64,000 nucleotides of DNA from Desulfobacterales bacterium (lineage in GTDB: Bacteria; Desulfobacterota; Desulfobacteria; Desulfobacterales; JAAELO01): NCBI GenBank assembly GCA_024226555.1, contig JAAELO010000494.1, forward strand, positions 1 through 64,000, written 5' to 3'. Positions 10,672 through 50,550 of the stretch are shown here, piece by piece. The position numbers and the translations under genes are program-made. The notes under the pieces are model-generated. The model saw only the letters and a list, made by a program, of their open reading frames with translations, searched no databases and had not been told where the DNA came from. How positions within the stretch are numbered: position 1 is the stretch's first letter; each line of letters begins with the position of its first letter.

Positions 10672-11445
10672 TGGGATGAAAAATGAATAATCAATTAAAA
10701 CTTTTACATAAACAAATAACAGAAAAAAAAATAAATTTGGATGATGCTGCTAAAAAATATATGTTGTTAGCAACTAAAATGAAAAACAACAAGAATATTT
10801 CATTTAGTTCAAAAGATAAACATTATTTAACAGCAGAGTTTAATAGAAAAGATGATACACACATTTTACGAGATATTCAGTTTTATTTAAAACAAAATTT
10901 ATCGAAATTACTGAATATTGATATTGAAGATATCGATGTTGTAACTAATATAAATGAATATACTGAAGATATAGTAAAATTAACTGAATTTATAAGTATA
11001 ATTAACAAAGAATATAATCTGAATCTTAGTGTTATTAGTTTTAATGAATACCAATCCATAGAAACTTTCACTGAATATTTGGTTGAAAAATATAAAGAAA
11101 AACTTACACAACAACTAGAAGTTAAAAATAAAAAAGAATCTACCTTAAAAGAAGAAACGAAATCACTCCCTGAGATGGAAAACGATCAGTTTAAAGAAAA
11201 GGCAATAAATTATTTTAAAAAACTTCTGTCATCAGTTATTAAGCTCCCAGCTAACCGTATTGATGCTGGTGCTCCTATGGAAAAATACGGCATAGATTCG
11301 ATAATGGTAATGCAATTAACCAGTCAGTTGGAGAAATCATTCGGTTCTTTATCCAAGACCTTATTTTTCGAATATACAAACATAGAAGAATTAACAGGAT
11401 ATTTTATCAAATCGTATCGTAATCAGTTGATAAAGTTATTAGGGA
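6571..11445 (+). other. PKS module 2, split: KS2-DH-KR on protein 1, ACP on protein 2
   Basis: KS2 is complete (VDTACSSS at 7057, HGTGT, NIGH). In DH the motif HxxxGxxxxP reads HVFNDQRILP: the glycine is aspartate (codon 8506), while His 8494, Pro 8521 and DSALQ are kept. KR has GGAGGLG at about 9844. The only active ACP that can serve this module is in protein 2 at 11178-11445 (Ser 11298), so the intermediate must be handled across the docking interface. Confidence 0.85.
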
Positions 11446-14400: not shown

Positions 14401-17400
14401 AGGAAATTTCAATGGTCATTGAATCAGTGAAGTATTCAGAGCATCTTGTAATACTCTGTGAACCAAAAGATGTTGCACTTAAAAGCATTGAAAAGAACAT
14501 GAAAGATATTCACCTGCATGTTATGCACTCAAAAGAAAAAGGTATTACTAAAAGATTTCAAGAATACTCTCTTCAGATATTTGAGGAGATACAAAGAATC
14601 ATCAAAGAAAAACCGAGTGGAAGAGTATTTATTCAGGTTGTTATTTCTCATGGAAATAAGGAAAAACTTTTCTTCGGACTATCTGGACTCTTAAAGACAG
14701 CAGAACTGGAAAATCCAAAGATCACAGGACAGGTCATTGAACTCGATAATTCGGAAGAGATCGTAAAAATATTGCAGGAGAATATTCGAACTCCCTATGA
14801 CGTACAAATTAAATACGAAAATGGGAAGAGATATGCAAAAAAATTTGTGGAGGTTAATTCTTCTGAAGAAATAAATATTCCGTGGAATGATAAAGGAGTT
14901 TATCTGATCACTGGGGGAGCAGGTGGTCTTGGTCAAATATTTGCGAAAGAAATACTTGCAAAAGTAAAAGATACCACATTGATTCTTACCGGACGATCAG
15001 AATTAGATAAAGATAAGCGAGCCCGTTTAAAGGAACTGGAGTCATTAGGAGCAAGGATAGATTACAGACAGGTTGATGTAACAAATAAAGAATCTGTAAT
15101 TAATTTAATTCAAAACATTCTGGAAAAGTTTAAAAAGCTTGATGGCATCATACATAGTGCAGGAATCATTCGGGATAACTTCATTTTTAAAAAAAACAGA
15201 GAAGAGTTCGAGAAGGTATTGGCACCCAAAGTAACAGGACTTGTAAATCTTGATGAAGCAAGCAAAAAAATACCCCTCGATTTCTTTATTTTCTTTTCAT
15301 CCATAGCTGGAGGCATGGGCAACATAGGTCAGGCAGATTATGCCTGCGCCAACGCCTTTATGGACGAGTATTCGGGATATAGGAACAACCTCGTATCATC
15401 AAATGTTCGATATGGAAAGACTCTGTCGATCAATTGGCCTTTGTGGAAAGATGGAGGAATGAGCGTTGATAAAGAAACAGAAAAGATTCTGATGCAAAGT
15501 ATGGGAATGATTCCTATGCAGACATTAAACGGGATTCAATTATTTTATACAGGTTTAATATCTGACCATAACCAGTTAATGGTTACAGAGGGAAAGATTC
15601 GAAGGATGCGTGAACGTATGTTTAACGTATCATCGAAGATTTATACAGATCAAACCAATCCATTCCCAGAAGTAGATTTAAAGCTGCTTAAAGAAAAGAT
15701 AGTACACAAAATTAAGGTTTTATTTGGAAGGATTACCAAGATAAATGTCTCGCAAATAGATATTGAAGAACCATTAGAATCCTATGGTATTGATTCTGTT
15801 ATGATAAGCATGCTTGATCAAAAATTAGAGGATATATTTTCCGGACTTTCAAAAACACTGTTTTTTGAATATCAGACATTAGAAGCACTATCTGAATATT
15901 TTATATCAGACCATAAGCATGAATGTGTTAAATGGACAGGGCTTGGAGGAGAAACATTTAATCTGTCCAGAAAATCTACAGAAAAAAAATATGATGTAAG
16001 TGAATTCCCAGTACTTGTGCCATTAAAAGCAGGTAAGAAAATTGGCCGCAATTTTACAGCAACAGCATCATATGGGAAAAGGGAGCCAATTGCTATAATC
16101 GCTATAAGCGGATGTTTTCCCCAGGCGAAAACGCTGAATGAATATTGGGAAAATTTAAAAGCAGGCAAAGATTGCATAACAGAAATACCAAAAGAGCGCT
16201 GGTCACTGGATGGATTTTATCATTCAGACCAGAAAGAAGCTACAGAAAAGTGGAAGAGCTATAGTAAATGGGGTGGTTTTATAGAAGAATTTTCTGAATT
16301 TGATCCACTCTTTTTCAATATGTCTCCAAGGGAATCTATGAATATAGACCCTCAGGAAAGGTTGTTTATAAAGTCCTGTTGGGAGGTTCTGGAGGATGCG
16401 GGCTACACCCGGGATCAACTAACTAAGCAGTTTAATAACAGAGTAGGAGTTTTCGCAGGAATCACTAAAACAGGGTTTGATTTGTACGGCCCTGATTTAT
16501 GGAAACAGGGGGAGGATGTGTATCCTCGCACATCATTCAGCTCATTAGCAAATAGGGTTTCATATCTATTAAATTTGCATGGTCCGAGCATGCCTGTTGA
16601 TACTATGTGTTCAGCATCATTAACAGCAATCCATGAGGCATGTGAACATCTTCACATGGGAGAGTGTGAGATGGCGATAGCAGGGGGCGTTAACCTTTAT
16701 CTTCATCCATCAAGTTATTTTTTGTTATGTTCACAACAAATGTTATCAACAGACGGTAAATGCAAGAGTTTTGGGCTTGGGGGTAACGGGTTTGTGCCAG
16801 GAGAAGGAGTGGGGACCGTTTTGCTGAAGTGCCTAACCCAGGCACAAAAGGATAAGGATAATATATATGCAGTAATTCGCGGGAGTGGTATCAACCATGG
16901 CGGGAAGACAAATGGTTATACAGTTCCTAATCCAAAAGCACAGACAGAATTAATCAGGACGACAATAGAAAAGGCAGGAGTTGATGCGAGGTCAATCAGT
17001 TATATAGAGGCCCATGGCACAGGGACATCACTTGGTGATCCCATTGAAATTACCGGGTTAACAAAAGCCTTTGAACAGGATACCACAGATAAGCAGTTTT
17101 GTACTATAGGATCTGTAAAGTCAAATATAGGCCATTGTGAGAGTGCAGCTGGGATTGCAGGTGTCGCAAAAGTAGTACTGCAATTAAAGAATCAGAAGTT
17201 AGTTCCGTCACTGCATTCAAAAACTCTGAATCCAAATATTGATTTTAGTAAAACACCATTTGTAGTTCAGCAGGAACTCACTGAATGGAAACGACCTGTT
17301 ATTAATGGTCATGAAGTAGCGCGGTGTGCAGGGATATCATCTTTTGGAGCTGGCGGATCAAATGCTCATCTTGTGATAGAGGAATATATATCAAAAAAAG

Positions 17401-20400: not shown

Positions 20401-22496
20401 ATCTTGTAAAAAATTATTCAGAAAAGTTTTTGGAATTTAGTGAAGTCGAAAAAGATGAAGTTGATAATTCAAAGGGTTCTATTTCTGTTAACAATACAGG
20501 TTTTCAGAAAAAAAATCGTTTTCAAAGGTTAAATCATTCAAACCAGATAACAAAAGGTAGTGAAACAGAAGATATTGCAATAATAGGAATTAGTGGGCGT
20601 TACCCCCTATCAAATACAATGGAAGAATTCTGGGCAAATTTAAAAGCCGGAAACAATTGTATTACTGAAGTCTCCAGCAATCGGTGGAATACTTTATTAC
20701 CTGGAAATGTATCTGAACTTGAATATCAATATCCGGATAAAAAGTATTATGGTGGTTTTTTAGATAATATTAATCGATTTGATCATAGTTTATTTGAAAT
20801 AAGTCAGGATCATGTAATGGAATTATCGCCGGAACTTCGTTTGTTTCTGGAGACTGCGTGGGAAACATTTGAGGATGCAGGATATAACAGGCTTGCAGTT
20901 CAGGATATACAAGCCAGATATCAGATGGGTGTTGGAGTATTTGTGGGTACTATGTACAGTCAGTATTTATGGAATATGCCTTCATTACAACAGGCAAAAC
21001 TGAATTCTAATATGACTGACTGGCAGATCGCTAATCGAACATCCCACTTTTTTAATCTTACTGGCCCAAGTATAATGGTCAACTCAGCTTGTTCAAGTTC
21101 GTTAACAGCAATTCATCAAGCATGCGAAAGTATTAAACTGAAAACATGTTCAATGTGCATTGCAGGAGGAATTAATTTGACTTTAGATCCTTCTAAATAT
21201 GATACATTGCAGCATTCGAATATTTTAGGAAGTGGCAATAAAAGCAAAAGTTTTGGAACCGGAGATGGATATATTCCTGGAGAGGGGGTTGGTGCAGTGT
21301 TATTAAAACCTCTTTCTATGGCTATTAAGGATCATGATCGAATTTATGCAGTGATTAAAAGTAGTTTTGTCAACCATAGTGGCGGACGTCAGATGTATTC
21401 AGCACCAGATCCGAAACAACAGGCACAACTAATTGTAAACTCAATTAAACGATCAGGAATAGATCCTGAAACAATAGGATATATAGAATCAGCAGCTAAT
21501 GGTTCTCCGCTTGGAGATCCGATTGAGATTATTGCTATTACTAATGCATTTGAGCAATATACTGATAAAAAACAATATTGTGCGATGGGTTCTGTAAAAT
21601 CCAATTTGGGACATTTGGAAGCAGCTTCCGGAATATCTCAACTCAGTAAAGTACTCATGCAATTAAAACATCAGACTCTTGTGCCAACGATTAATGCTAA
21701 TCCACAAAATCCAAGTATGACTTTAAAGAATTCTGCATTTTATCTTCAAGAAGAAACTGAATCATGGAATCAAATTAAAGATCAAACAGGAAAAGATTTA
21801 CCACGCAGAAGTATGATTAATTCATTTGGTGCAGGTGGATCATATTCTAATATAATTATTGAAGAATTCGAAAGTAAAACTATTCAAGAGAAGTCAGAGC
21901 TCTCATTTGAAGAGTATCTTATTGTTTTTTCGGCTAAAACTGAATGGAGTCTGATGAAGTATCTTGATAAAATCAGAGAGTTCATAGAAAAGAATTCAAA
22001 TATTGAGATAGCTGATATAGCCGGGACATTGCATAAAATCAACCATAATCTGGATCAAAGAGTAGCTATTGTTGCAACATCCATAAATGAGTTACTCAAA
22101 AAAATAAATCATATATTAGAAACAAGAGAAAGTTTAACGGAATCTATCTATATATCTTCTGATCAAAGGTCGTATTTAACTTCCCTATCTTCATCAACTA
22201 TTGATAAAGCATTGGAGAAAAGGAATTTACAACAATTGGCTGAGCATTGGATAGCTGGTGGCACAATTAATTTCAATCAACTCTATAAAGATTCAAGGAA
22301 TCAGTGGATTACTTTGCCTAAGTATTGCTTTGATCATAACATTGAGTTTGATTTTAAAGAGATTGAGCCTATTGAAAATAATATAGTGGAGTTAAATGAC
22401 GAATTTTATCAAAAACTTTTATTTGGAATATCAAATGGTGAATTATCTGAAGATGAATTTGAAGAAATACTAAAAATATCAGGAAGAGTGAATTAA
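10683..22496 (+). CDS. Trans-AT polyketide synthase, protein 2
   Basis: 3,937-residue modular PKS. Domains by nucleotide: N-terminal docking helices 10683-10790; ACP-like domain without serine 10857-11106; ACP 11178-11445; KS3 11592-12900 (Cys 12120); DH 13461-14340; KR 14370-15620; ACP 15669-15930 (Ser 15795); KS4 16077-17394 (Cys 16608); DH 17949-18820; KR 18860-20095; ACP 20187-20440 (Ser 20298); KS5 20568-21880; C-terminal docking helix 22380-22493. KS3 and KS4 share a VDTMCS active site, unlike the other KSs. KS5 keeps Cys 21090 but has lost the HGTGT histidine, so it should transfer and not extend. ATG at 10683 follows the previous stop by 11 bases behind a short GGGA. Protein 3 starts one base after the stop, consistent with one operon and coupled translation. 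Confidence 0.96.
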   Translation: MNNQLKLLHKQITEKKINLDDAAKKYMLLATKMKNNKNISFSSKDKHYLTAEFNRKDDTHILRDIQFYLKQNLSKLLNIDIEDIDVVTNINEYTEDIVKLTEFISIINKEYNLNLSVISFNEYQSIETFTEYLVEKYKEKLTQQLEVKNKKESTLKEETKSLPEMENDQFKEKAINYFKKLLSSVIKLPANRIDAGAPMEKYGIDSIMVMQLTSQLEKSFGSLSKTLFFEYTNIEELTGYFIKSYRNQLIKLLGTEENDQTSIQNPKNYVNSSMPVSTLVSTRKRSRFVSMSRNSVKEKELSSLDIAVIGVSGQYPKARNVQEYWKNLKNGKDCITEIPEERWDYKLFFDEDKNKFGKTYSKWGGFIDGVDEFDPLFFNISPREAEFIDPQERLFLECVFATIEDAGYTRKSLSIDHGFNSGCSVGVYVGVMYEEYQLYGAQGQIQGMPFALSGSSSSIANRVSYFCNFHGPSMAVDTMCSSSLTAIHLACQSIQQNGCELAIAGGVNVSIHPNKYLMLSQGKFASSKGRCESFGDGGDGYVPGEGVGAVLLKPLSKAIDDGDHIYGIIKATAINHGGKTNGYSVPNPNAQVGVIGQAFKDAGIDAKTISYIEAHGTGTSLGDPIEIAGLTKAFEQDTTEKQFCSIGSAKSNIGHCESAAGIAGITKILLQLKNGQIAPSLHSKSLNPNIDFSKTPFVVQQELTEWKRPVIDDHEMPRRAGVSAFGAGGSNAHVVIEEYISKEVSPFKIAITSNSPAIIILSAKNEERLKELAKQLLEAISIREFSDKNLSDIAYTLQVGREAMEERLGMSVVSIKELEEKLIGFMDGSDDIEDIYRGKVKGNKDALSVFAADEELQEAIEKWIKRKKYTKLLDLWVKGLIFDWNKLYGDTKPRRISLPTYPFAREKFWIPENTTIADNMSGSGIASFLHPLLHQNTSNISEQKFSSTFTGEEFFLSDHVVKGHRIFPGIACLEMARAAIEASTEALENSNVRVRLKNVVWGKPIAMGDEKAQVHIGLFPENNGEIAYEIYSDSGEEDVAVYNQGKAVLYITEDTTTLDIKAIQEECNQTVLSSAQCYETFKAIGLEYGPAHQGIEKIYVGENQILSKLVLPPTVLNTKDQYMLHPGMLDSTLQSSIGFMQGSVDTKTTEQCKLALPSSLQELEILSNCTANMWSWIRYSNGSKPNDKIQKFDIDLCDENGDVCARLKGFSSKVLEGEIELSESSPSIGTLMFEPQWQAQEISMVIESVKYSEHLVILCEPKDVALKSIEKNMKDIHLHVMHSKEKGITKRFQEYSLQIFEEIQRIIKEKPSGRVFIQVVISHGNKEKLFFGLSGLLKTAELENPKITGQVIELDNSEEIVKILQENIRTPYDVQIKYENGKRYAKKFVEVNSSEEINIPWNDKGVYLITGGAGGLGQIFAKEILAKVKDTTLILTGRSELDKDKRARLKELESLGARIDYRQVDVTNKESVINLIQNILEKFKKLDGIIHSAGIIRDNFIFKKNREEFEKVLAPKVTGLVNLDEASKKIPLDFFIFFSSIAGGMGNIGQADYACANAFMDEYSGYRNNLVSSNVRYGKTLSINWPLWKDGGMSVDKETEKILMQSMGMIPMQTLNGIQLFYTGLISDHNQLMVTEGKIRRMRERMFNVSSKIYTDQTNPFPEVDLKLLKEKIVHKIKVLFGRITKINVSQIDIEEPLESYGIDSVMISMLDQKLEDIFSGLSKTLFFEYQTLEALSEYFISDHKHECVKWTGLGGETFNLSRKSTEKKYDVSEFPVLVPLKAGKKIGRNFTATASYGKREPIAIIAISGCFPQAKTLNEYWENLKAGKDCITEIPKERWSLDGFYHSDQKEATEKWKSYSKWGGFIEEFSEFDPLFFNMSPRESMNIDPQERLFIKSCWEVLEDAGYTRDQLTKQFNNRVGVFAGITKTGFDLYGPDLWKQGEDVYPRTSFSSLANRVSYLLNLHGPSMPVDTMCSASLTAIHEACEHLHMGECEMAIAGGVNLYLHPSSYFLLCSQQMLSTDGKCKSFGLGGNGFVPGEGVGTVLLKCLTQAQKDKDNIYAVIRGSGINHGGKTNGYTVPNPKAQTELIRTTIEKAGVDARSISYIEAHGTGTSLGDPIEITGLTKAFEQDTTDKQFCTIGSVKSNIGHCESAAGIAGVAKVVLQLKNQKLVPSLHSKTLNPNIDFSKTPFVVQQELTEWKRPVINGHEVARCAGISSFGAGGSNAHLVIEEYISKKESSSQIVISDNNPAIIVLSTKNEESLKAQAKQLLEAIANREFPDASLPDIAYTLQVGREAMGERLALSVVSIKELEEKLNGFLENRDDIEGLYRGQVKSNKDALSVFAADEDMGNIIDVWIAKRKYPKLLNLWVKGLIFDWKKLYGDEVPNRISLPTYPFARERYWIPENTTSTDNMVGTGVASFLHPLLHQNTSNLSEQKFSSTFTGEEFFLSGHVVKGQRILPGVAYLELARTAVEYATETLREGDTCILLKNVVWLHPIAVGDEKVQVHIRLLPEDNGEIAYEIYCNSGEGDVTVYNQGKALLCAPTNIAKLDIKKIQKECNQRILSSTQCYEAFKAIGLEYGPGHKGIKNIYVGENQVISELTLPSIVSDTKDQYVLHPGMLDSALQSSIGFILGSVDKENAAQVKPALPFALQELEILSNCTTNMWAWIRYSNGSKSDDKIQKIDIDLCDENGKICAQLKGFSSRILEGEVELSESSTAMGTLILESKWKEQEVSIDIEAVEYSEHLVLCIPKDIALENIEKDMKDVNLLVMHSKEKGITDRFKEYSLQIFEEIQRIIKEKPSGRVFIQVVISNENEEKLFCGLSGLLKTAELENPKITGQIIELDNPEEIVKILIENLRTPYDRYIKYENGKRYTSSFVEVEYSEEVNIPWKEKGIYLITGGLGGLGQIFAKEILAKVKNTTLILTGRSELNEDKRAQLKTLESLGARIDYRQVDVTNKGSVNDLMQSIQEEFGKLNGIIHSAGIIRDNFILKKNREEFKEVLAPKVKGLVNLDEASKNMPLDFFVLFSSVAGSMGNMGQADYACGNAFMDAYAEYRNTLLSSNVRHGKTLSINWPLWKNGGMSVDKATENMMQSMGIIPMHTKSGINALYHSFSSGREHVVVMEGNVDLIKEKQLLIRKAKPMSITTSSKIKLSEKASISGNSFQEHVVDFIKNILSDAIKLSPERIQLETPFEKYGVDSIIQLNIIRELEKVTGEVSKTLLFEYSTVQELADYLVKNYSEKFLEFSEVEKDEVDNSKGSISVNNTGFQKKNRFQRLNHSNQITKGSETEDIAIIGISGRYPLSNTMEEFWANLKAGNNCITEVSSNRWNTLLPGNVSELEYQYPDKKYYGGFLDNINRFDHSLFEISQDHVMELSPELRLFLETAWETFEDAGYNRLAVQDIQARYQMGVGVFVGTMYSQYLWNMPSLQQAKLNSNMTDWQIANRTSHFFNLTGPSIMVNSACSSSLTAIHQACESIKLKTCSMCIAGGINLTLDPSKYDTLQHSNILGSGNKSKSFGTGDGYIPGEGVGAVLLKPLSMAIKDHDRIYAVIKSSFVNHSGGRQMYSAPDPKQQAQLIVNSIKRSGIDPETIGYIESAANGSPLGDPIEIIAITNAFEQYTDKKQYCAMGSVKSNLGHLEAASGISQLSKVLMQLKHQTLVPTINANPQNPSMTLKNSAFYLQEETESWNQIKDQTGKDLPRRSMINSFGAGGSYSNIIIEEFESKTIQEKSELSFEEYLIVFSAKTEWSLMKYLDKIREFIEKNSNIEIADIAGTLHKINHNLDQRVAIVATSINELLKKINHILETRESLTESIYISSDQRSYLTSLSSSTIDKALEKRNLQQLAEHWIAGGTINFNQLYKDSRNQWITLPKYCFDHNIEFDFKEIEPIENNIVELNDEFYQKLLFGISNGELSEDEFEEILKISGRVN
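10857..11106 (+). other. Degenerate ACP-like domain lacking the phosphopantetheine serine
   Basis: Between the docking helices and the first true ACP of protein 2 lies a stretch of ACP length with ACP-like helix spacing. Where active ACPs read YG(I/V)DS(I/V), this one reads YTEDIV, with Ile (codon 10971) at the serine position. It cannot carry a phosphopantetheine arm and may be structural, helping the split KS2-DH-KR reach the downstream ACP. The homology call rests on pattern and length only. Confidence 0.65.
11592..15930 (+). other. PKS module 3: KS3-DH-KR-ACP
   Basis: KS3 is complete (VDTMCSSS, EAHGTGT, NIGH). DH has HVVKGHRIFP and DSTLQ. KR has GGAGGLG at about 14910, Ser in FFSS and Tyr in DYACAN; the HSAGIIRD segment has Asp at the position typical of B-type KRs. 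The predicted unit is an alkene if DH is active. Confidence 0.88.
16077..20440 (+). other. PKS module 4: KS4-DH-KR-ACP
   Basis: KS4 has VDTMCSAS (Cys 16608), EAHGTGT and NIGH. DH keeps HVVKGQRILP and DSALQ. KR reads GGLGGLG at about 19398, a small change from the GGAGGLG of its siblings, with FSS and DYACGN retained. ACP Ser is at 20298. Predicted unit: alkene. Confidence 0.88.
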
Positions 22497-23785
22497 AATG
22501 AATGATAAAATTAAAGATTTGTATAAACTGATAAGAGAGCAGAAAGTAAGTAATGAAGATGCTATCAAACAAATTAAGTCTGCAATACATATTGATGATG
22601 AAATCACACCTTCATTGGATTTATGGAATGCAAACCCGACTGTATCTGAGATATACATATATGACGAACCTTATCTTCGTGATCACACTGTTTATGATGA
22701 GCAGGTTCTTTTAGGAGTAACTCATGGAAGCCTGGCGATCAATACATTTTTTAGCCTGTTTCCTGAAGAAAGCAGTGTTCATCTTCATAAGTTAACTTTT
22801 TTTAAACCCGTTGAAGTAAAAAAAGACCAACAAGTAGAAGTTATTGTTGATTCAATAGGAAAAGGTTCAGGAACTGATTTTCAGGTTCTTTATCGTTATG
22901 CGCCATCAGAGACATGGAATTTGACTGCTAACGGGAGTTTACAAAAAACTGTATTAGAAAACCAGGAAACAGATGTAGAGAATCTGAAAGAGAGCTTAAC
23001 AGAGTTCAATGATATCAATAAGATTTATACAAAAAATTCAGTGGTTGGATTGGGAGAAAGCTTCAAAACAATCACTCAGATTTTTACAGGAAATGATCAG
23101 GTTCTTGCGCGGGTTAAATTAAGTAAAACTTCACTGGAAGAAAATCATAGGTATGCTTTACATCCTCTTATTATTAATAGTGCTTTTCTTTCTTTATCTC
23201 CACTGCTGATTTTTATGGGACTTGAAGAAGGTTTCTTACCATTTGGAATAAAAAATGTCTTTTTTAAAAAACATAGTGCAGATGGAATAGAACAGTGCTG
23301 GTTGCTTACTAAATTAGTAAAAAAATCAGGAGAGATGATTCTCTTTGATGTTGATGTGATTAATGATGAATCAAAAGTTATAGCCAATTTTACAGGTTGT
23401 TCTATTAAACGGCTTCGCCCTGTGAATCAGGGTGTTGCAAATGATAGTAAAACCTCTGCTTTAACAGAGCTAAAGCCCCAACTTATGGAAAAGAATAATC
23501 CAATCAGAAATGCAACCAATTTAAGTGGCAAAATTCAAAAATACTTAATCAAAAAATTAGGTAAAATTGTATCTGATAGTTCAAAGTTATCTGACTTAAG
23601 TGTCAATCTAATGGACCTCGGAGTGGAATCAACTCAATTTGTTGCAATGGCTACTGAGATTGAAAAAGAAACAAAGATAGAATTGTACCCAACATTATTT
23701 TTTGAATACCCAAGCATTAAAGAGTTAATCGGGTATTTTGACCAGGAACACCAGGATTCATTTATTCAACTATTTGGAGTTTCAA
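20568..23785 (+). other. Split non-elongating module: KS5(0) on protein 2, EI-like and ACP on protein 3
   Basis: KS5 has VNSACSSS (Cys 21090) but reads ESAANGSPLGDP where other KSs read EAHGTGT; the His position is Ala (21492). Protein 3 opens with a DH-fold domain (about 22600-23420) in which His 22684 is kept, but the Pro of HxxxGxxxxP is Leu, the catalytic Asp is Asn (23176) and the Gln is Leu (23188). An ACP with a GVES serine (23629) follows. KS0 plus a DH relative with Asp to Asn is the known signature of double-bond-shifting (enoyl-isomerase) modules in trans-AT PKSs. Confidence 0.75.
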
Positions 23786-26700
23786 AAAAAACCAAGGTTT
23801 CTGATGCCGTAAACAAAACTGTAGGGATCACTTCACTTAAACCAGCACAGAATAATTCCAGAGTTTCTGATACAGGTTTGAAAAAAGTTGAACGGATACA
23901 AAAGGTTGCATCAAAACCGTCCCATTCAAATGATATAGCTGTGATAGGTTTGAATGGTAATTTTGCAGAAGCTTCTAATGTAAACCAGTTCTGGAACAAT
24001 TTACGTGATAAGAAAAATTTAATGAAGGAAATCCCCATAGATCATTGGGATTATCGCCCATGGTATAATGAAAATCCAAACACAACTAATATGACCTACT
24101 GCAAATGGGGAAGCTTTATTGATGATGTGGATAAATTTGATGCATCTTTTTTTAACATATCCCCTCGGGAAGCAGAGTGGATGGATCCCCAATTACGATT
24201 ACTACTGCAAAGTATTTATGCCACAGGGGAAGATGCTGGTTGTATTAATCAGTTGAGAGGAACGAACACAGGGGTGTTTATTGGGGTTTGTTTCCATGAT
24301 TATGGTGATAAAATTGCTGAGATGAATATTCCTGTTGATCCATATTCGGGAAGTGGAAATGCATCAACAGTAATTGCAAATAGGGTTTCATTTCTATTTG
24401 ATTTTACCGGCCCCAGTATTGCAGTAGATACAGCCTGTTCTTCCTCATTAGTTGCATTACATAATGCTTGTCAGGCCATACGAAATAATGAATGCGATAT
24501 GGCATTTGCAGGGGGGGCAAATTTGCTCCTGTCGTCCCTTCATTATCGATATTTTTGCAGTATTGGTGCATTATCTCCCACTGGTCGCTGTCATACTTTT
24601 GATAAAGATGCAGATGGTTATACTCCGGGAGAATGTATTGCAAGTGTTTTATTGAAACCACTTGATCACGCAAAAAGGGATGGTGATCAAATATATGCAA
24701 TCATCAAAGGTTCAGCTGCTTTACACGGAGGATACACCCCTTCCTTTACAGCTCCAAGTGTTGCCGGGGAAGAAAATGTTATTTTAAAAGCATGGGAAAA
24801 CGCAGGAATTGATCCTGAAACCATTAGCTATATAGAAGCACACGGTACAGGTACAAAGTTGGGAGACCCAATTGAGGTTAACAGTTTAAAAAAAGCATTT
24901 AAGCATTTTACCAAAAAAGAACATTTTTGCGCAATAGGTTCTGCTAAAGCTAATATCGGGCATACTGAAGGTGCAGCCGGAATTGCAGGTTTATTGAAAG
25001 TTATCCTCCAGATGAAGCATCAGCAAATTCCGGCATTACCATTTTTTAAAAAATTGAATCCGTATATTCAGCTGGATAAATCACCATTATATATAAACAC
25101 GGAGAATGGAGAGTGGCAAAGTCCTGAAGGTGTCCCAAGGCGTGCAGGTGTTAGTTCCTTCGGATTTTCAGGTGCCTATGCCCATGTTGTAGTAGAAGAA
25201 TATATATCAGAAAATACTACTCGAGATCAGATTTTTCTTACGAATGAAAATCCGGCATTAATTGTACTATCTGCAAAGAATGAGGATCGTTTAAAAGAAC
25301 AGGCTAAGCAATTGCAGGAAGCAATTATTGAGAGAGAATTTCCTGATGCAAGTCTGTCTGATATAGCGTATACGCTTCAGATTGGACGAGAGGCCATGGA
25401 AGAGCGTCTTGCAATGATTGTGGTAAACATAGAAGAACTTGAAGAAAAGTTAAATAGATTTCTGGATGGAAATGATGATGATATATATCGTGGTCAGCTT
25501 AAGCACAATGAAGATGCCATAACTGTTTTTGATGCTGATGAAGAATTACAGGAAGCAATTGAGAAGTGGATTATAAGAAAAAAATATACAAAACTATTAA
25601 GTTTATGGGTTAAAGGCCTTCTTTTTGATTGGAATAAACTATATGGTGATGTAAAACCCATTCGCATTAGTTTGCCCACTTATCCATTTGCTCTCGAAAG
25701 ATATTGGATACCTGAGAATACAACCAGTGCAGGTAATAAAGCAGGTACAGGTATTGCGTCATTTCTCCATCCATTGTTGCATCAAAATACATCGAATTTT
25801 GAGAAACAGCGATACAGTTCAACATTTACCGGAGAAGAATTTTTTCTAAAAGATCATGTCGTAAAGGGACAGCGAATATTGCCAGGGGTCGCATATCTTG
25901 AGATGGCACAGGCAGCAGTTAAGCAAACAACAGGAACATTGAATGAAGGCGAGACTGGCGTTTTGCTCAAAAACGTTGTGTGGATTCGTCCTATTGTAGT
26001 GGGAGACGAAAAAGTTCAAGTACACATCGGATTGTTTCCTGAAGACAATGGAGAGATAGCTTATGAAATCTATTGCGATTCAGGAGAAGGCGATGTCAAA
26101 GTATACAGTCAGGGAAATGCTCTGTTGTGTATACCTGCTGAAACTACCATAGATATTAAAACAATACAGGAAGAGTGTAATCAAAGTGTTTTTACTTCTA
26201 CTAAATGCTATGAAGCATTTAAATCGATGGGATTAGAATACGGTCCTGGTCATCAAGGGATAGAAAATGTATATGTGGGAGAGAATCAGGTACTTTCAAA
26301 GCTTGTTCTGCCATCCACAGTTTTGGACACCAAAGATCAATACGTCCTTCATCCAGGTATCTTTGATTCAGCACTTCAATCAGCAATTGGATTTATGTTG
26401 GGTTCTGTTGATACAGAGAATACACCGCAAGACAAGCCTGCACTTCCATTTGCCTTGCAGGAGATTGAAATACTAAGTAATTGTACAGCCAACATGTGGG
26501 CATGGGTGAGAGACAGCACTGGAAGTAAACCAGAACACAATATTCAGAAACTCGATATAGATTTGTGTGATGAAAATGGAATTGTTTGCGTACGAATGAA
26601 AGGTTTTTCATCAAGAGTACTTGTAGGTGAAGTTGAGTTTCCAGAATCGTCATCAACTGTTGGAACATTGATGATAGAGCCACAATGGAAAGAGCAGGAA

Positions 26701-29700
26701 ATTTCAATGGATATAGAAGTTGTTGAGTGTACAGAGCATCTTGTACTACTCTCTGATCCGGAATATTTTGCACTTGAAAGTTTTGAAAAGGATATGAAAG
26801 ACGTTAACATTATTGTTATGTGTTCAAAAGAAAAAAGTATTCCTGAAAGATTTGAAGAGTATGCATTTCAAACATTTGAGAAAATACAAAGAATCATCAA
26901 AGAAAAACCGAGTGGAAGAGTATTTATTCAGGTTGTTATTTCTCCCGGAATTGAAGAAAAACTTTTCTGCGGACTATCAGGGCTCTTAAAAACAACAGAA
27001 CTGGAAAATCCAAAGATAACAGGACAGATCATTGAGCTCGATAATTCGAAAGATATAGTAAAAATATTGCAGGAAAACATTCGTACTCCCTATGAAAGGC
27101 ACATTAAATACGAAAATGGGATGAGATACACAGCAAGTTTTGTGGAGGTTGAATCATCTGAAGAAGTAAAAATTCCGTGGAAGGATAAAGGAATCTATTT
27201 AATCACGGGAGGAGCAGGCGGTCTAGGTAATATATTTGCGAAAGAAATACTTACGAAAGTAAAAAATACTACATTGATTCTCACTGGACGATCAAAATTA
27301 GGTGAGGATGTAATAGACCGGTTAAAAGAGGAGTTATTGGGTGCAAGGATTGACTACAGACAGGTTGATGTAACGAATGCGCAATCTGTAATTGATCTAA
27401 AGCAAAGTATACAGGAAGAGTATGGAGAGCTTAATGGCATAATACATAGTGCTGGAGTGGTTCGAGATAACTTCATTCTGAAAAAAACAAGAGAAGAGTT
27501 CGAGGAAGTATTAGCACCGAAAGTAACAGGGCTTGTAAATCTTGATGAAGCATGCAAAAACATGCCCCTTGATTTCTTTATTTTATTTTCTTCTGTAGTC
27601 GGAAGTATGGGTAACATAGGTCAGGCTGATTATGCCTGCGCCAACGCCTTCATGGATGCTTATGCCAGATATCGTAATTTACTCGTATCATCAAATGTTC
27701 GACATGGAAAAACTCTATCGATCAATTGGCCTTTGTGGAAAAATGGAGGAATGAGTGTTGATAAAGAAACAGAACAGAAAATAATGCAAAGCACGGGGAT
27801 AATACCCATGTATACTGCAAGCGGCATAAATGCTTTATATCAAAGTTTTTCATCTGGCAGAGATCAGGTTGTTATTTTGGAAGGAAATGTTGATCTGATA
27901 AAGGAAAAGCAACTTTTGATAAGCACAGCAAAACCTATGCATGCTGTTACAGCATCCAATATTGAAATCACTGAAAAAATCAGTGTATCTGATAATTCTT
28001 TACAAGAAGAAGTGGTAGAATTTATAAAAAAAATAATATCAGAAGTAATAAAGATATCACCTGAAAAGATTCAATTAGAAACACCTTTTGAAAAATACGG
28101 GATTGATTCGATTTCGCAATTAAATCTGATACAAGAGTTGGAGAAGGTAACAGGAGAGGTTTCTAAATCACTACTATTTGAATATAGCACTGTTCAGGAA
28201 TTGGCAGATTATCTTATAAAATATTATTCAGAAAAGTTTTCGAAATTTAGAAAAGTAGAAAAAGGTGAAGCTCAAAATTCAAAAAAAAATATTCTTATAA
28301 ACAGTACAGGTTCTAAACATTCACATTTCCAGAAAAAAAATCGTTTTCAGAGATTAAATGAATCAAACCAGTTATCAATAGATAGTGAAACAGATGATAT
28401 TGCAATAATTGGAATTAGTGGTCGTTACCCCTTATCAAATACAATGGAAGAATTCTGGGCAAATTTAAAAGCAGGGAGCAATTGTATTACTGAAGTCTCC
28501 AGCAATCGGTGGAATACATTATTATCTGGAAAAACATCTGGATTGGAATATCAGTATCCGGAAAAAAAGTATTACGGTGGCTTTTTAGATAATATTAATC
28601 GATTTGATCATAGTTTATTTGAAATTAGCCAGGACCAGGTTATGGACTTATCGCCGGAACTCCGTTTGTTTCTGGAGACTGTTTGGGAAACTTTTGAGGA
28701 TGCCGGATATGCAAGACTTGCAATTCAGGATATACAAGCCAGATATGAGATGGGTGTTGGGGTATTTGTGGGTACTATGTACAGCCAGTATTCATGGAAT
28801 ATGCCTTCATTAGAAATGGCAGGACTACATTCCAATGGGAGTGACTGGCAGATTGCTAATCGAACATCCCATTTTTTTAATCTTACAGGTCCAAGTATTG
28901 CGGTAAATTCAGCCTGTTCCAGTTCTTTAACCGCAATTCATCTGGCGTGCGAAAGCCTTAAGCAGAAAACGTGTTCAATGTGTATTGCAGGAGGAATTAA
29001 TTTGACATTAGATCCTTCAAAATATGACGCATTGGGGCATTTAAATTTTTTAGGAAGTGGCAATAAAAGTAAAAGTTTTGGTACTGGAGATGGATATATT
29101 CCTGGAGAGGGAGTCGGTGCAGTATTATTAAAACCTCTCTCTATGGCTATTAAGGATCATGATCGAATTTACGCTGTCATTAAAAGTAGTTTTATAAACC
29201 ATAGCGGTGGACGGCAGATGTATGCAGCTCCTGATCCGAAACAACAGACACAACTAATTATAAACTCAATTAAACGATCGGGTATAGATCCTGAAACGAT
29301 CGGGTATGTTGAATCAGCAGCCAATGGTTCACCACTTGGAGATCCGATTGAGATTATTGCTCTTAATAATGCATTCGAGCAATATTCTGATAAAAAACAA
29401 TATTGTGCCATTGGTTCAGTGAAATCCAACTTGGGACACTTGGAAGCAGTTTCCGGAATATCTCAACTCAGTAAAGTACTTATGCAATTAAAACATCAGA
29501 CTCTTGTGCCAACGATAAATGCGAGTCCCAGAAATCCAGGAATAAATATTGACAATACTGCATTTTATTTTCAGGAAAAAACCGAGACATGGAATCAGAT
29601 TAAGGATCCACTATCAGGAAGCGCTCTACCCAGGCGAAGTATGGTCAATTCATTTGGCGCGGGAGGAGCGTATGGAAATCTCATTATTGAAGAATATGCA

Positions 29701-30321
29701 GGTGAAGTTGTAATACAGGAATCAAGTATATCTTTTTCACAGGAATTTCTCATTGTTTTTTCAGCAAAAACAGAATGGAGCCTGATGAAGTATATTGATA
29801 AAATCCGAGTATTCATAGAAAAGAATTCAAACCTGAAGATAGCTGATATAACAGCAGCTTTGCATAAAACCAACCATAATCTTGATCAAAGAGTGGCTAT
29901 TGTAGCATCATCCATAAGTGAATTGTTAGAAAAAATAAATTCTTTTCATGAACGAAGTACTTTCATAGATTCCGATATTTACATCTCTTTTAATCAAGAA
30001 ACCAATACGAATATTATATCTTCATCATCCATTAATCAAGCTCTGGAAAATAAGAATTTACGGAAACTGGCAGAGTATTGGGTAGCTGATGGAACAATTG
30101 ATTTCACTCATTTATATAAAGATTTAAGAACTCAATGGATTACTTTACCTAAATATTGCTTTGATCATAACATTGAATTTGATTTTAACCTCAATGAAGA
30201 ATTTGAAAATAATAGGGTAATGAAATTTGATGATGATTTTTTTAGAGACCTTTATGAAAGAGTATTAAAAGATGAATTATCTGAAGAGCAAGTTAAAAAT
30301 ATAATTATGGCGTCAGAATAG
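22498..30321 (+). CDS. Trans-AT polyketide synthase, protein 3
   Basis: 2,607-residue PKS. Domains by nucleotide: N-terminal docking helices 22498-22590; enoyl-isomerase-like DH relative 22600-23420; ACP 23524-23785 (Ser 23629); KS6 23929-25206 (Cys 24436, HGTGT and NIGH present); flanking linker to about 25710; DH 25759-26640; KR 26660-27905; ACP 27998-28260 (Ser 28108); KS7 28393-29695 (Cys 28915, HGTGT His replaced by Ala at 29317); C-terminal docking helix 30211-30318. The gene begins and ends inside non-elongating modules: it supplies the isomerase half of one and the KS half of the next. Only KS6 should add a ketide. ATG at 22498 is one base past the stop of protein 2; there is no clear separate ribosome site, so coupled translation is likely. 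Confidence 0.96.
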   Translation: MNDKIKDLYKLIREQKVSNEDAIKQIKSAIHIDDEITPSLDLWNANPTVSEIYIYDEPYLRDHTVYDEQVLLGVTHGSLAINTFFSLFPEESSVHLHKLTFFKPVEVKKDQQVEVIVDSIGKGSGTDFQVLYRYAPSETWNLTANGSLQKTVLENQETDVENLKESLTEFNDINKIYTKNSVVGLGESFKTITQIFTGNDQVLARVKLSKTSLEENHRYALHPLIINSAFLSLSPLLIFMGLEEGFLPFGIKNVFFKKHSADGIEQCWLLTKLVKKSGEMILFDVDVINDESKVIANFTGCSIKRLRPVNQGVANDSKTSALTELKPQLMEKNNPIRNATNLSGKIQKYLIKKLGKIVSDSSKLSDLSVNLMDLGVESTQFVAMATEIEKETKIELYPTLFFEYPSIKELIGYFDQEHQDSFIQLFGVSKKTKVSDAVNKTVGITSLKPAQNNSRVSDTGLKKVERIQKVASKPSHSNDIAVIGLNGNFAEASNVNQFWNNLRDKKNLMKEIPIDHWDYRPWYNENPNTTNMTYCKWGSFIDDVDKFDASFFNISPREAEWMDPQLRLLLQSIYATGEDAGCINQLRGTNTGVFIGVCFHDYGDKIAEMNIPVDPYSGSGNASTVIANRVSFLFDFTGPSIAVDTACSSSLVALHNACQAIRNNECDMAFAGGANLLLSSLHYRYFCSIGALSPTGRCHTFDKDADGYTPGECIASVLLKPLDHAKRDGDQIYAIIKGSAALHGGYTPSFTAPSVAGEENVILKAWENAGIDPETISYIEAHGTGTKLGDPIEVNSLKKAFKHFTKKEHFCAIGSAKANIGHTEGAAGIAGLLKVILQMKHQQIPALPFFKKLNPYIQLDKSPLYINTENGEWQSPEGVPRRAGVSSFGFSGAYAHVVVEEYISENTTRDQIFLTNENPALIVLSAKNEDRLKEQAKQLQEAIIEREFPDASLSDIAYTLQIGREAMEERLAMIVVNIEELEEKLNRFLDGNDDDIYRGQLKHNEDAITVFDADEELQEAIEKWIIRKKYTKLLSLWVKGLLFDWNKLYGDVKPIRISLPTYPFALERYWIPENTTSAGNKAGTGIASFLHPLLHQNTSNFEKQRYSSTFTGEEFFLKDHVVKGQRILPGVAYLEMAQAAVKQTTGTLNEGETGVLLKNVVWIRPIVVGDEKVQVHIGLFPEDNGEIAYEIYCDSGEGDVKVYSQGNALLCIPAETTIDIKTIQEECNQSVFTSTKCYEAFKSMGLEYGPGHQGIENVYVGENQVLSKLVLPSTVLDTKDQYVLHPGIFDSALQSAIGFMLGSVDTENTPQDKPALPFALQEIEILSNCTANMWAWVRDSTGSKPEHNIQKLDIDLCDENGIVCVRMKGFSSRVLVGEVEFPESSSTVGTLMIEPQWKEQEISMDIEVVECTEHLVLLSDPEYFALESFEKDMKDVNIIVMCSKEKSIPERFEEYAFQTFEKIQRIIKEKPSGRVFIQVVISPGIEEKLFCGLSGLLKTTELENPKITGQIIELDNSKDIVKILQENIRTPYERHIKYENGMRYTASFVEVESSEEVKIPWKDKGIYLITGGAGGLGNIFAKEILTKVKNTTLILTGRSKLGEDVIDRLKEELLGARIDYRQVDVTNAQSVIDLKQSIQEEYGELNGIIHSAGVVRDNFILKKTREEFEEVLAPKVTGLVNLDEACKNMPLDFFILFSSVVGSMGNIGQADYACANAFMDAYARYRNLLVSSNVRHGKTLSINWPLWKNGGMSVDKETEQKIMQSTGIIPMYTASGINALYQSFSSGRDQVVILEGNVDLIKEKQLLISTAKPMHAVTASNIEITEKISVSDNSLQEEVVEFIKKIISEVIKISPEKIQLETPFEKYGIDSISQLNLIQELEKVTGEVSKSLLFEYSTVQELADYLIKYYSEKFSKFRKVEKGEAQNSKKNILINSTGSKHSHFQKKNRFQRLNESNQLSIDSETDDIAIIGISGRYPLSNTMEEFWANLKAGSNCITEVSSNRWNTLLSGKTSGLEYQYPEKKYYGGFLDNINRFDHSLFEISQDQVMDLSPELRLFLETVWETFEDAGYARLAIQDIQARYEMGVGVFVGTMYSQYSWNMPSLEMAGLHSNGSDWQIANRTSHFFNLTGPSIAVNSACSSSLTAIHLACESLKQKTCSMCIAGGINLTLDPSKYDALGHLNFLGSGNKSKSFGTGDGYIPGEGVGAVLLKPLSMAIKDHDRIYAVIKSSFINHSGGRQMYAAPDPKQQTQLIINSIKRSGIDPETIGYVESAANGSPLGDPIEIIALNNAFEQYSDKKQYCAIGSVKSNLGHLEAVSGISQLSKVLMQLKHQTLVPTINASPRNPGINIDNTAFYFQEKTETWNQIKDPLSGSALPRRSMVNSFGAGGAYGNLIIEEYAGEVVIQESSISFSQEFLIVFSAKTEWSLMKYIDKIRVFIEKNSNLKIADITAALHKTNHNLDQRVAIVASSISELLEKINSFHERSTFIDSDIYISFNQETNTNIISSSSINQALENKNLRKLAEYWVADGTIDFTHLYKDLRTQWITLPKYCFDHNIEFDFNLNEEFENNRVMKFDDDFFRDLYERVLKDELSEEQVKNIIMASE
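23929..28260 (+). other. PKS module 6: KS6-DH-KR-ACP
   Basis: KS6 directly follows the first isomerase module. It has VDTACSSS, HGTGT and NIGH, but reads PGECIA where most KSs read PGEGVG, and LHGGYTPSF where siblings read NHGGKTNGY. KS8, which follows the second isomerase module, shares these variants, so they probably mark a KS clade that accepts the isomerised chain. DH (HVVKGQRILP, DSALQ) and KR (GGAGGLG at about 27205) look active. Confidence 0.87.
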
Positions 30322-30322
30322 T

Positions 30323-30330
30323 GGGGGAGG
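30323..30330 (+). promoter_or_regulatory. Strong Shine-Dalgarno that fixes the start of PKS protein 4
   Basis: GGGGGAGG ends five bases before ATG 30336. A GTG at 30321 that overlaps the preceding TAG is in frame, but it lies upstream of this ribosome site, so 30336 is the better start. It is the strongest ribosome site in the PKS operon. Confidence 0.8.
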
Positions 30331-30335
30331 AAAAA

Positions 30336-33300
30336 ATGGATAATCAATATAAATTACTTTATAAAAAAATAAATTCAGAAGATACAGTAACAAAATTATA
30401 TAAACAAATAAATGAAGAGAAAATAAATTCAGATGATGCTGTAACTCAACTATATAAACAAATAAAAGAAAAAATAATAAGTCCGGATGATGCAGTAAAA
30501 CAATTTAAATTACTTGCGATACAGAATGAAGATGAAATTATTCATTCATTAAGTTTGTGGAATGGAAATCCGGCTGTGCCCGAGATATACATATATGATG
30601 AACCTTACCTCCATGATCACACTGTTTATGATGAACAGGTTGTTGTAGGAGTAACTCATGCAAGTTTAGCCATAAATGCTTTTTTCAATATATTCCCTGC
30701 AGAAAGCAGTGTTCATCTTCACAAATTAACTTTTTTTAAGCCAATTGAAGTAAAAAAAGATCAACAAGTAGAAGTTATTGTTGATTCAATTGAAAAAGGT
30801 TCGGGAACGGATTTTCAGGTTCTTTATCGTCATGCTATATCAGAGACATGGAATCTGACTGCTACCGGGAGTTTACAAAAAACTATATTAGATCACCAGG
30901 AAATTGATGTAGAGAATATTAAAGAGAGCTTAACAGAATTTAACGATATCAATCAAATTTATACAAGAAATTCAGTGGTTGGAATGGGACCAAGCTTCAG
31001 AACAATCTCTCAACTTTATACAGGTAAAGATCAGGTACTTGCGCGAGTTGCTTTAAGTAAAACTTCACTGGAAGAAAACCATAAGTATGTTTTGCATCCT
31101 CTTATTATTAATAGTGCTTTTCTTTCTTTATCTCCTTTATTGATTCATATGGGGAACAATGAAGGTTTTTTACCATTTGGAATCAAAAATATCTTTTTTA
31201 AAAAAAATATTGCCGATGGAATAGAACTGTGCTGGTTGCTTGTTAAATTGGTAAAAAATTCTGGAGAGTTGATTATTTTTGATGCTGACGTGATTAATGA
31301 TGAGTCACAAGTAATAGCCAATTTCACAGGCTGTTCTTTGAAACGATTTCGTTCTGTGAGTCAGGGGGTTGCTAATGGATATGAAACTTCTGTTTTAACA
31401 GAACAACAACCTCAACGCCTGGAATTTAACAATCAAATTGATATTGATTCAATTGAAAAAGTAGCAGATCTAAGCGAAAAAATTCAAAAATATTTAATCA
31501 ATAAGCTTGGTAAAATTGTATCTGATCGTTCAAACTTATCCAATTTAAATGTTAATCTAATAGAACTCGGGGTAGAGTCAATTCAATTAGTTGAAATGGC
31601 TAATGATATCGAAAAAGAAACAAAGATAGAAATATATCCAACATTATTCTTTGAATACCCAAATATTAAAGAGCTTACCGAGTATTTTACAAAGGAACAT
31701 CGTGATTCATTTATTCATCTATTTGGAATAATTTCAAAGAAGGCCAAAGTTTCCAATGCTGTAAATAAGACACTGGAGATAACTTCACTCAAAGAAGTAC
31801 AAGAGAGTTCAAGACCCACAGATACTGGTTTGAAAAAAGTCAAACTATTGCAAAAGAGTAGTTCATTAAAACCGTCTAATTCAAATGATATTGCAGTGAT
31901 CGGTATGGATGGTAATTTTGCAGAAGCTTCAAATTTAAAACAGTTCTGGAATAATTTATGTGATAAAAAAGATTTAATGAAAGAAATTCCCTTAGATCAT
32001 TGGGATTATCGACCATGGTATAATGAAAATTCAAGCACAAATAATATGACCTACTGCAAATGGGGAAGTTTTATTGACGATGTGGATAAATTTGATGCAG
32101 CTTTTTTTAACATATCACCTCGGGAAGCAGAATGGATGGATCCCCAGTTGCGATTACTGCTGCAAAGCATTTATGCCACTGGGGAGGATGCGGGCTACAT
32201 CAACCAATTAAGAAGTACAAACACTGGGGTGTTTGTTGGAGTTTGTTTTCAGGATTATGCCGGTAAGATTGCTGAGATGAATTTTCCTGTTGATCCATAT
32301 ACGGGAAGTGGCAACGCATCAACTGTAATTGCAAATCGGGTTTCATTTATATTTGATTTTACCGGCCCCAGTATTGCAGTAGATACAGCCTGTTCTTCCT
32401 CATTGGTTGCTTTACATAATGCTTGTCAGGCTTTGCAAAATGAAGAATGTGATATGGCATTTGTAGGGGGAGTAAATTTGCTCCTGTCATCCGTTCATTA
32501 TCGTTATTTTTCCAGTATTGGTGCGTTATCTCCCACAGGTCGCTGTCATACTTTTGATGAAGTTGCAGATGGCTATACTCCGGGAGAGTGTATTGCAAGT
32601 ATTTTATTGAAACCGTTAGATCATGCAAAAAAGGATGGGGATCAAATATATGCAATCATCAAAGGCTCATCCGCTTTACATGGAGGGCACACTCCTTCCT
32701 TCACTGCGCCTAGTGTTGCTGGAGAAGAAAATGTAATTGTAAAAGCATGGGAAGCTGCTGGGATTCATCCTGAAACCATTGGTTATATAGAAGCACATGG
32801 TACAGGAACAAAATTGGGAGATCCAATTGAGATTAACAGTTTAAAAAACGCATTTAAGCGTTTTACCAAGAAAGAACAATTTTGCGCAATAGGTTCTGCT
32901 AAAGCAAATATTGGACATGCTGAAGGAGCCGCTGGAATTGTAGGGTTATTGAAAGTTATTCTCCAGATGAAGCATCAGCAAATTCCAGCATTACCATTTT
33001 TTAAAACATTGAATCCGTACATTCAACTGGATAAATCACCATTATATATAAACAGTGAGCATGAGGAGTGGAAAAGTCCAGAAGGTGTTCCAAGGCGCGC
33101 AGGTATAAGCTCCTTTGGATTTTCAGGTGCATATGCTCATGTTGTAGTTGAAGAATATATATCAGAAAATCCCGTGCAACATCAGATTCCTGTTACGAAT
33201 GAAAATCCCGCATTAATTGTGCTTTCCGCAAAGAATGAAGACCGTTTAAAAAATCAGGCGAAACAATTGCTGGAAGCGATTACTGAGAGAGGTTTTTATG

Positions 33301-50433: not shown

Positions 50434-50532
50434 TGTATTGAAGTTAACGAGGCATTTAGTGAAATAATTAGATTGTAAAAAACATACTTATTTTTAAAAT
50501 GAGATTTTGAAAAATTCCTGTTTTCCAATTAT

Positions 50533-50550
50533 ACGATTGTTGAAAATCGT
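50533..50550 (-). terminator. Hairpin between the convergent CHAT-like and ankyrin genes
   Basis: ACGATT and AATCGT form a six-base stem just beyond the ankyrin stop codon. The flanks are T-poor on the minus strand, so terminator activity is uncertain. Confidence 0.3.

What the first reader, a model, noticed from the sequence alone, without database searches (positions are those of the whole stretch)
20568..31740. Two KS0/enoyl-isomerase modules, each split across a protein boundary
KS5 and KS7 keep the active Cys but have Ala for the HGTGT His. The next proteins begin with DH-fold domains in which catalytic Asp is Asn, Gln is Leu and the motif Pro is Leu or Val. KS0 plus such a DH relative is the known mark of double-bond-shifting modules in trans-AT PKSs. 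Having two, both divided between proteins, is unusual. A difficulty: if all upstream DHs work, the isomerase meets a conjugated polyene, so either some DHs are silent or the domain does something else, such as E/Z or vinylogous shifting. A pyran-synthase-like role is a weaker alternative.
Basis: partly seen in the sequence, partly recalled or inferred. Interest (0 to 1): 0.8.

Follow-up and report, generated by a model that had tools for sequence, protein, structure and literature searches.

The report
Two split double-bond-shifting polyketide modules
Two steps of this bacterial polyketide assembly line move a carbon-carbon double bond by one position instead of lengthening the chain, each done by enzyme parts made on two separate proteins; this is a known trick, apparently doubled here by one duplication, so it is a sound but fairly ordinary example.

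Summary
KS5 (end of ORF2) and KS7 (end of ORF3) keep the active Cys and second His but read ESAANGS for EAHGTGT. ORF3 and ORF4 each begin with a DH-fold domain: His kept, Asp→Asn, Gln→Leu, Pro→Leu/Val.

Both domains are enoyl-isomerases (EI) by homology: best solved relative is PksEI of bacillaene (4u3v, E 5e-61 and 6e-60; EI1 model Z 32.3), and they fall in an EI clade apart from all DHs. KS5/KS7 fall in a fully supported KS0 clade; 12 of 13 KSs found with this motif precede an EI or EI-like domain. KS6/KS8, just downstream, fall with other KSs that follow an EI.

Being split is not unusual: 6 of those 12 pairs are split, and two shifts per line are reported for rhizoxin, necroxime and lasonolide. 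Here one DH-KR-ACP-KS0|EI-ACP-KS block seems duplicated, boundary included. And the polyene difficulty probably dissolves: KS4 belongs to a clade fed mostly by modules without a working DH, so EI1 likely meets a 5-hydroxy-2-enoyl chain.

New member of a known kind; catalysis and product untested.

The parts
13458..14339 (+). DH3 (module 3), catalytic residues intact but probably bypassed
   Evidence: HVVKGHRIFPG and HPGMLDSTLQ; sister of DHc which also feeds a KS4-type KS; omega 0.45 for that pair
16083..17396 (+). KS4, of the kind fed mostly by modules without a working DH
   Evidence: five-row clade 100/100; 94% identical to KSb of contig C313
17946..20426 (+). DH4-KR4-ACP4, source of the 2-enoyl chain for KS5
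20565..21878 (+). KS5, non-elongating KS0 (NSACSSS / ESAANGS / KSNLGH), C-terminal in ORF2
22380..22493 (+). C-terminal docking-like helices of ORF2
   Evidence: pattern shared with ORF1 and ORF3 ends; function inferred
22498..22593 (+). N-terminal docking-like helices of ORF3
   Evidence: pattern shared with five other N-termini, three of them at split KS0|EI junctions elsewhere; function inferred
22633..23421 (+). EI1, enoyl-isomerase domain
   Evidence: 4u3v E 4.7e-61; model Z 32.3 to 4u3v; EI clade
23533..23757 (+). ACP of module 5 (LGVES)
23926..25215 (+). KS6, KS of the kind that follows an EI
   Evidence: 97/81 clade
25756..26634 (+). DH6, intact dehydratase of module 6
28393..29703 (+). 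KS7, non-elongating KS0, C-terminal in ORF3
30211..30318 (+). C-terminal docking-like helices of ORF3
30345..30536 (+). N-terminal docking-like helices of ORF4, in 2.6 tandem copies of an 18-residue unit
30567..31355 (+). EI2, enoyl-isomerase domain
   Evidence: 4u3v E 5.8e-60; EI clade; sister of EI1
31476..31706 (+). ACP of module 7 (LGVES)
31881..33170 (+). KS8, KS of the kind that follows an EI
   Evidence: 97/81 clade

Best explanation
These are two double-bond-shifting modules (KS0|EI-ACP) of a trans-AT polyketide synthase, alternating with ordinary elongating modules. KS5 takes the chain from ACP4 onto its Cys and hands it to the module-5 ACP without elongation, because the HGTGT His needed for decarboxylative condensation is gone. 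EI1, on the next protein and held there by terminal docking helices, uses its one catalytic His to move the 2,3-double bond to 3,4. KS6 elongates the shifted chain. Module 6 adds two carbons, reduces and dehydrates, giving a 2,5-diene with a doubly allylic CH2 at C4. KS7/EI2 repeat the shift, giving a 3,5-diene, which KS8 elongates. EI1 most likely meets a 5-hydroxy-2-enoyl chain, because KS4 is of a type fed mostly by modules without a working DH, so DH3 is probably bypassed. The two split modules arose by tandem duplication of one DH-KR-ACP-KS0|EI-ACP-KS block that already held the protein boundary. Shown: domain order, residues, phylogeny, fold match, repeated block. Inferred: the reactions, substrates, docking partners.
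For: Nearest solved relative of both domains is PksEI 4u3v by about 40 orders of magnitude. AlphaFold2 model of EI1 best matches 4u3v, Z 32.3, 1.8 A over 241 residues. EI clade of 12 rows, SH-aLRT 97. KS0 clade of 8 rows, 100/100; 12 of 13 KSs with the AANGS motif precede an EI or EI-like domain. KS6/KS8 group with KSs that follow an EI. KS4 groups, 100/100, with KSs after KR-only modules. Duplicated block with dS 0.41, 0.45, 0.43 for EI, KS0 and next KS, omega 0.13-0.23.
Against: No compound is known and no activity was measured. DH3 keeps all catalytic residues, so its silence is inferred from KS4's clade, which itself holds two members after modules with an intact DH (KS4 and KSd). KSa, which follows the loading ACP, is the next relative of the post-EI KS clade, so that clade may not be specific to shifted double bonds. 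The docking profile found no solved docking domain.
Confidence: 0.88

Rival explanations
1. All upstream DHs are active, the chain at EI1 is a conjugated polyene, and EI1 performs a remote (vinylogous) or E/Z isomerisation instead of a simple 2-ene to 3-ene shift.
For: DH1 to DH4 all keep His, Pro, Asp and Gln. KS3 groups with a bacillaene KS that follows a DH-KR module.
Against: KS4's clade is fed mostly by modules without a working DH. Other DHs of this cluster are already lost: a remnant in module a and one without its His in module b. EI1 and EI2 are 81% identical with the same active-site letters, so a special reaction in one is unlikely.
Confidence: 0.07
2. KS5|EI1 and KS7|EI2 are dehydrating bimodules: the DH-like domain removes the hydroxyl made by the preceding module, as at the two split KS0|DH junctions of bacillaene.
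For: Same split layout, KS0 at one end and DH-like domain at the other, in bacillaene PksJ/PksL and PksL/PksM.
Against: Modules 4 and 6 have their own intact DH. The bacillaene bimodule KS0s carry EANGSG[ST], keep D in the DH, and form separate clades in both trees. EI1/EI2 lack the catalytic Asp and motif Pro.
Confidence: 0.02
3. The domains are pyran synthases or other DH-like cyclases.
For: Same double-hotdog fold.
Against: The sorangicin pyran synthase 6b2v is far down the structural list (Z 23.2 against 32.3) and not among sequence hits at E up to 1e-3. Pyran synthases need not come with a KS0 of this clade.
Confidence: 0.01
4. One or both modules are silent relics that only pass the chain along.
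For: Silent domains occur in this cluster: a DH remnant, a DH without its His and ACP-like domains without Ser.
Against: EI1/EI2 omega 0.23 and KS5/KS7 0.18 at dS above 0.4; EI residue set intact; matching KS types downstream in both places.
Confidence: 0.02

Closest known systems
Bacillaene PKS, PksR/BaeR KS0-EI module (PksEI, PDB 4u3v)
   Same: KS0 with ESAANGS, EI with His kept, Asp to Asn, Pro to Val, Gln to Leu; about 38% identity to EI1 and the same fold
   Different: One shift only, KS0 and EI in line on one protein, after an MT-bearing module
KS0|EI junctions of an Acidobacteria gp11 MAG (contigs C497, C286) and of Thermoflavimicrobium dichotomicum
   Same: KS0 ends one protein, EI (or EI-like) begins the next, with like N-terminal docking helices; the C497 EI is the nearest found, 58-62% identical
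   Different: Fragmented contigs; the second acidobacterial domain keeps Asp (HPAVFDAIH) and has a long branch
Rhizoxin PKS
   Same: Two consecutive alpha,beta to beta,gamma double-bond shifts (title of Kusebauch 2010 as cited in PMC11672594)
   Different: Sequence not compared here
Necroxime PKS
   Same: DHs of modules 9 and 11 in the double-bond-shift clade, one module between them as here (PMC7318616)
   Different: Sequence not compared here; [quoted passage not shown]
Lasonolide PKS
   Same: Two double-bond-shifting domains, LasM DH1 and LasN DH1, each the first DH of its protein; KSs LasL KS4 and LasM KS5 called inactive (PMC9600693)
   Different: Several modules between the two; sequence not compared here

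Membership tests
trans-AT PKS enoyl-isomerase (EI) domain | Closest to PksEI among solved DH-fold domains | tested here: met
   E 4.7e-61 and 5.8e-60 against 4e-17 and 4e-20 for the next; Z 32.3 against 28.6
trans-AT PKS enoyl-isomerase (EI) domain | His kept, Pro of HxxxGxxxxP to hydrophobic, Gln/His of DxxxQ/H to Val/Leu (PMC11672594, PMC9600693), Asp to Asn as in 4u3v | tested here: met
trans-AT PKS enoyl-isomerase (EI) domain | Groups with known EIs, apart from DHs | tested here: met
   12-row EI clade, SH-aLRT 97, quick tree
trans-AT PKS enoyl-isomerase (EI) domain | Moves 2-enoyl to 3-enoyl on ACP | not testable with these tools
   needs an enzyme assay
Non-elongating KS (KS0) of double-bond-shift modules | Cys kept, HGTGT His lost | tested here: met
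   NSACSSS and ESAANGS in both
Non-elongating KS (KS0) of double-bond-shift modules | Groups with KS0s that precede an EI | tested here: met
   8-row clade 100/100, careful tree
Dehydrating bimodule (KS0|DH) | Preceding module has KR but no DH, and the DH keeps its catalytic Asp | tested here: not met
   modules 4 and 6 have intact DHs; EI1/EI2 have Asn
Pyran synthase | Groups with pyran synthases | tested here: inconclusive
   only 6b2v seen, Z 23.2; no pyran-synthase clade built
Four-helix (double-helix-pair) docking domains of trans-AT PKSs | About 25-residue helical pairs at both sides of a subunit junction | tested here: inconclusive
   conserved terminal patterns fit PMC9113145, but no match to a solved docking domain

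The most novel reading that the evidence does not exclude
EI1 acts on a conjugated polyenoyl chain and performs a remote (vinylogous) or E/Z isomerisation not known for EI domains, while EI2 does the ordinary shift.
Probability: 0.07. Interest if true: 0.6.

Novelty: new member of a known kind. Interest (0 to 1): 0.33.

Why it matters
It is a clear natural example of how an assembly line can gain a second double-bond shift: one block, running from about one post-KS linker to the next and including a protein boundary, appears to have been duplicated. The catalytic parts stayed about 80-90% identical while the docking ends fell to 27-39%. That raises a testable question: did the docking ends diverge so that the middle protein is neither skipped nor repeated? 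It also shows that KS types around a module (a beta-hydroxy KS upstream, KS0, a post-EI KS downstream) predict the shift without a product in hand. The polyketide is unknown, and no other EI was found in 394 other genomes of the host's phylum.

Tried and rejected
Dehydrating bimodule: rejected on residues, KS0 motif and trees. Pyran synthase: no positive support. Chance or misread motif: excluded by recurrence in other lineages. DH3 silence: catalytic residues intact and the omega signal (0.45 for DH3/DHc) modest, so it stays an inference. Docking profile against solved structures: only spurious hits. Rfam: no match in the window. EI search in the host's order (96 genomes) and phylum (395 genomes) found no other genome with an EI at the thresholds used. 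The paper describing PksEI is not held, so residue rules are taken from papers citing it and from the 4u3v sequence.
Full report
OBSERVATION. The window carries four consecutive PKS proteins without AT domains. ORF2 ends with KS5, ORF3 begins with a DH-like domain and ends with KS7, and ORF4 begins with another DH-like domain. KS5 and KS7 read NSACSSS, ESAANGS and KSNLGH where elongating KSs read DTxCSSS, EAHGTGT and KSNIGH: Cys and second His kept, first His replaced by Ala. The two DH-like domains keep His but have D for Gly and L or V for Pro in HxxxGxxxxP, and NSAFL for DxxxQ. The seven ordinary DHs of the window keep His, Pro, Asp and Gln. The finding's description is correct at its coordinates.

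MODULES. M1 KS1-DH-KR-MT-ACP-ACP; M2 KS2-DH-KR | (ACP-like, no Ser)-ACP; M3 KS3-DH-KR-ACP; M4 KS4-DH-KR-ACP; M5 KS5(0) | EI1-ACP; M6 KS6-DH-KR-ACP; M7 KS7(0) | EI2-ACP; M8 KS8-DH-KR-MT-ACP-ACP; M9 KS9-DH-KR-MT-ACP; M10 KS10-ACP-TE (TE read from the sequence, no profile run). The window starts inside a gene. Contig C313 of the same genome ends with exactly the first 141 bases of the window, a typical assembly-graph overlap, so C313 most likely precedes it. C313 carries a protein that reads as AT-AT-ER, an AMP-ligase-ACP start, then KSa-(DH remnant)-KR-ACP, KSb-DH(no His)-KR-ACP(no Ser) | MT-ACP, KSc-DH-KR-ACP and KSd-DH-KR-MT-ACP. The AT-AT-ER and ligase assignments rest on reading motifs.

THE DH-LIKE DOMAINS. 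The best solved relative of both is 4u3v, the enoyl-isomerase PksEI of bacillaene, at E 4.7e-61 and 5.8e-60; the next, a CurJ dehydratase, is at 4e-17 and 4e-20. The AlphaFold2 model of EI1 (mean pLDDT 83) aligns best with 4u3v (Z 32.3, 1.8 A over 241 residues), then CurJ DH (28.6), GphF DH1 (about 27.6), the ambruticin DH-cyclase (25.9) and the sorangicin pyran synthase (23.2). In a quick tree of 66 DH-like domains EI1 and EI2 sit in a 12-row EI clade (SH-aLRT 97) with the bacillaene EIs and those of Nostoc, Thermoflavimicrobium, Paenibacillus and an acidobacterial MAG; the split DHs of bacillaene's dehydrating bimodules fall elsewhere.

THE KSs. In a careful tree of 75 KSs KS5 and KS7 fall in a clade of eight KS0s with 100/100 support. 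Of 13 KSs found with an AANGS motif, 12 precede an EI or EI-like domain, in line or at the start of the next protein; the exception is a Klebsiella plasmid KS whose next recognised domain is an ACP. KS6 and KS8, directly downstream of EI1 and EI2, form a 97/81 clade with KSs that follow an EI in Nostoc, Paenibacillus and Thermoflavimicrobium. So the KS before, the EI and the KS after point the same way. One caution: KSa, the first KS of the line, which follows the loading ACP, is the next relative of that clade, so the clade may recognise a CH2 next to the thioester more generally.

IS THE SPLIT UNUSUAL? No. Of the 12 KS0-EI pairs, six are split (two here, two in the acidobacterial MAG, one of them with an Asp-keeping EI-like domain, one in Thermoflavimicrobium, one in genome G415) and six are in line (B. 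spizizenii, genomes G102, G103, G239 and G249, and Nostoc). This is a small, relatedness-biased sample. Bacillaene itself has two split KS0|DH junctions. A review states that split modules such as KS/DH are typical of trans-AT PKSs and often held by helical docking domains (PMC9113145). Two shifts in one line are reported for rhizoxin (title cited in PMC11672594), necroxime (modules 9 and 11, PMC7318616) and lasonolide (LasM DH1 and LasN DH1, PMC9600693).

ORIGIN BY DUPLICATION. Aligned with each other, the stretch from the linker after KS4 to KS6 and the stretch from the linker after KS6 to KS8 are mostly 60-93% identical through DH-KR-ACP-KS0, drop to 35-44% at the protein ends, are 69-92% identical again through EI-ACP-KS, and lose similarity within the DH after KS8. 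The edges lie near the LPTYPF linker that PMC11260071 proposes as the natural exchange site. Synonymous divergence is alike in the three pairs tested (EI 0.41, KS0 0.45, following KS 0.43), with dN/dS 0.13-0.23. This reads best as one tandem duplication that copied the protein boundary, so the two splits are not independent. The DH-KR part is less telling, since all DH-KR pairs of this cluster resemble each other, and other KS pairs of the cluster have like dS (0.39-0.44). The docking ends are 27% (C-terminal) and 39% (N-terminal) identical, far below the catalytic domains; selection for separate partners is an attractive inference, but linker drift would also do it.

MECHANISM AND THE POLYENE DIFFICULTY. 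KS0 passes the chain without elongation; EI moves the 2,3-double bond to 3,4 by proton transfer through its His (known for PksEI from the literature; inferred here). For EI2 the difficulty does not arise: a chain shifted by EI1 and extended by M6 is a 2,5-diene with a CH2 at C4, which becomes a 3,5-diene. For EI1 the question is whether M3 leaves a hydroxyl. KS4 lies in a five-row clade (100/100). Two members, in Paenibacillus and the acidobacterial MAG, follow modules with KR and no DH; KSb of C313, 94% identical to KS4, follows a module whose DH is reduced to a remnant. The other two, KS4 and KSd, follow modules with an apparently intact DH. Those DHs, DH3 and DHc, are sisters (SH-aLRT 96) and have the highest omega of the DH pairs compared (0.45), but keep their catalytic residues. 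The most likely substrate of EI1 is therefore a 5-hydroxy-2-enoyl chain with an sp3 gamma-carbon; I put this at about 0.7.

VERDICT. The rarity claim is not supported and the stated difficulty has a likely answer. It is a new, clean member of a known kind, in a genome whose phylum showed no other EI among the 395 genomes searched, with an unknown product.

Noticed in passing
window 30363-30505: The N-terminal docking-like helix of ORF4 is repeated in tandem: period 54 bases (18 residues), 2.6 copies, 78% matches.
   Followed up: partly
window 10878-11102: ORF2 begins with an ACP-like domain without the phosphopantetheine Ser (EDIVKL), followed by a normal ACP; C313 has another ACP-like domain with Gln for Ser (GFDQIM).
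   Followed up: no
window 1-141 and genome contig C313: The reverse strand of contig C313 (26 kb) ends with exactly the first 141 bases of the window, so the start of the cluster (AT-AT-ER protein, AMP-ligase loading, four modules) lies there.
   Followed up: partly
L042 (acidobacterial MAG contig C286), first protein: A KS0 of the EI kind is followed, on the next protein, by an EI-like domain that keeps Asp (HPAVFDAIH) and has Met for the motif Pro; a possible intermediate or a different activity.
   Followed up: partly
L038-L039 (Paenibacillus sinensis), protein 10046-25771: An EI domain (HKVGGEPVLI, Tyr-Asn for the Asp region) lies in a module whose KS keeps HGTGT, that is, an EI without a KS0.
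   Followed up: no
genome contigs C452, C453, C386, C754, C847: The same genome holds further PKS modules on other contigs, some with lower GC (0.29-0.31), so probably more than one PKS cluster.
   Followed up: no
window 47125-52539: Directly downstream of the PKS lies a CHAT-NACHT protein, then an ankyrin-repeat protein on the other strand.
   Followed up: no
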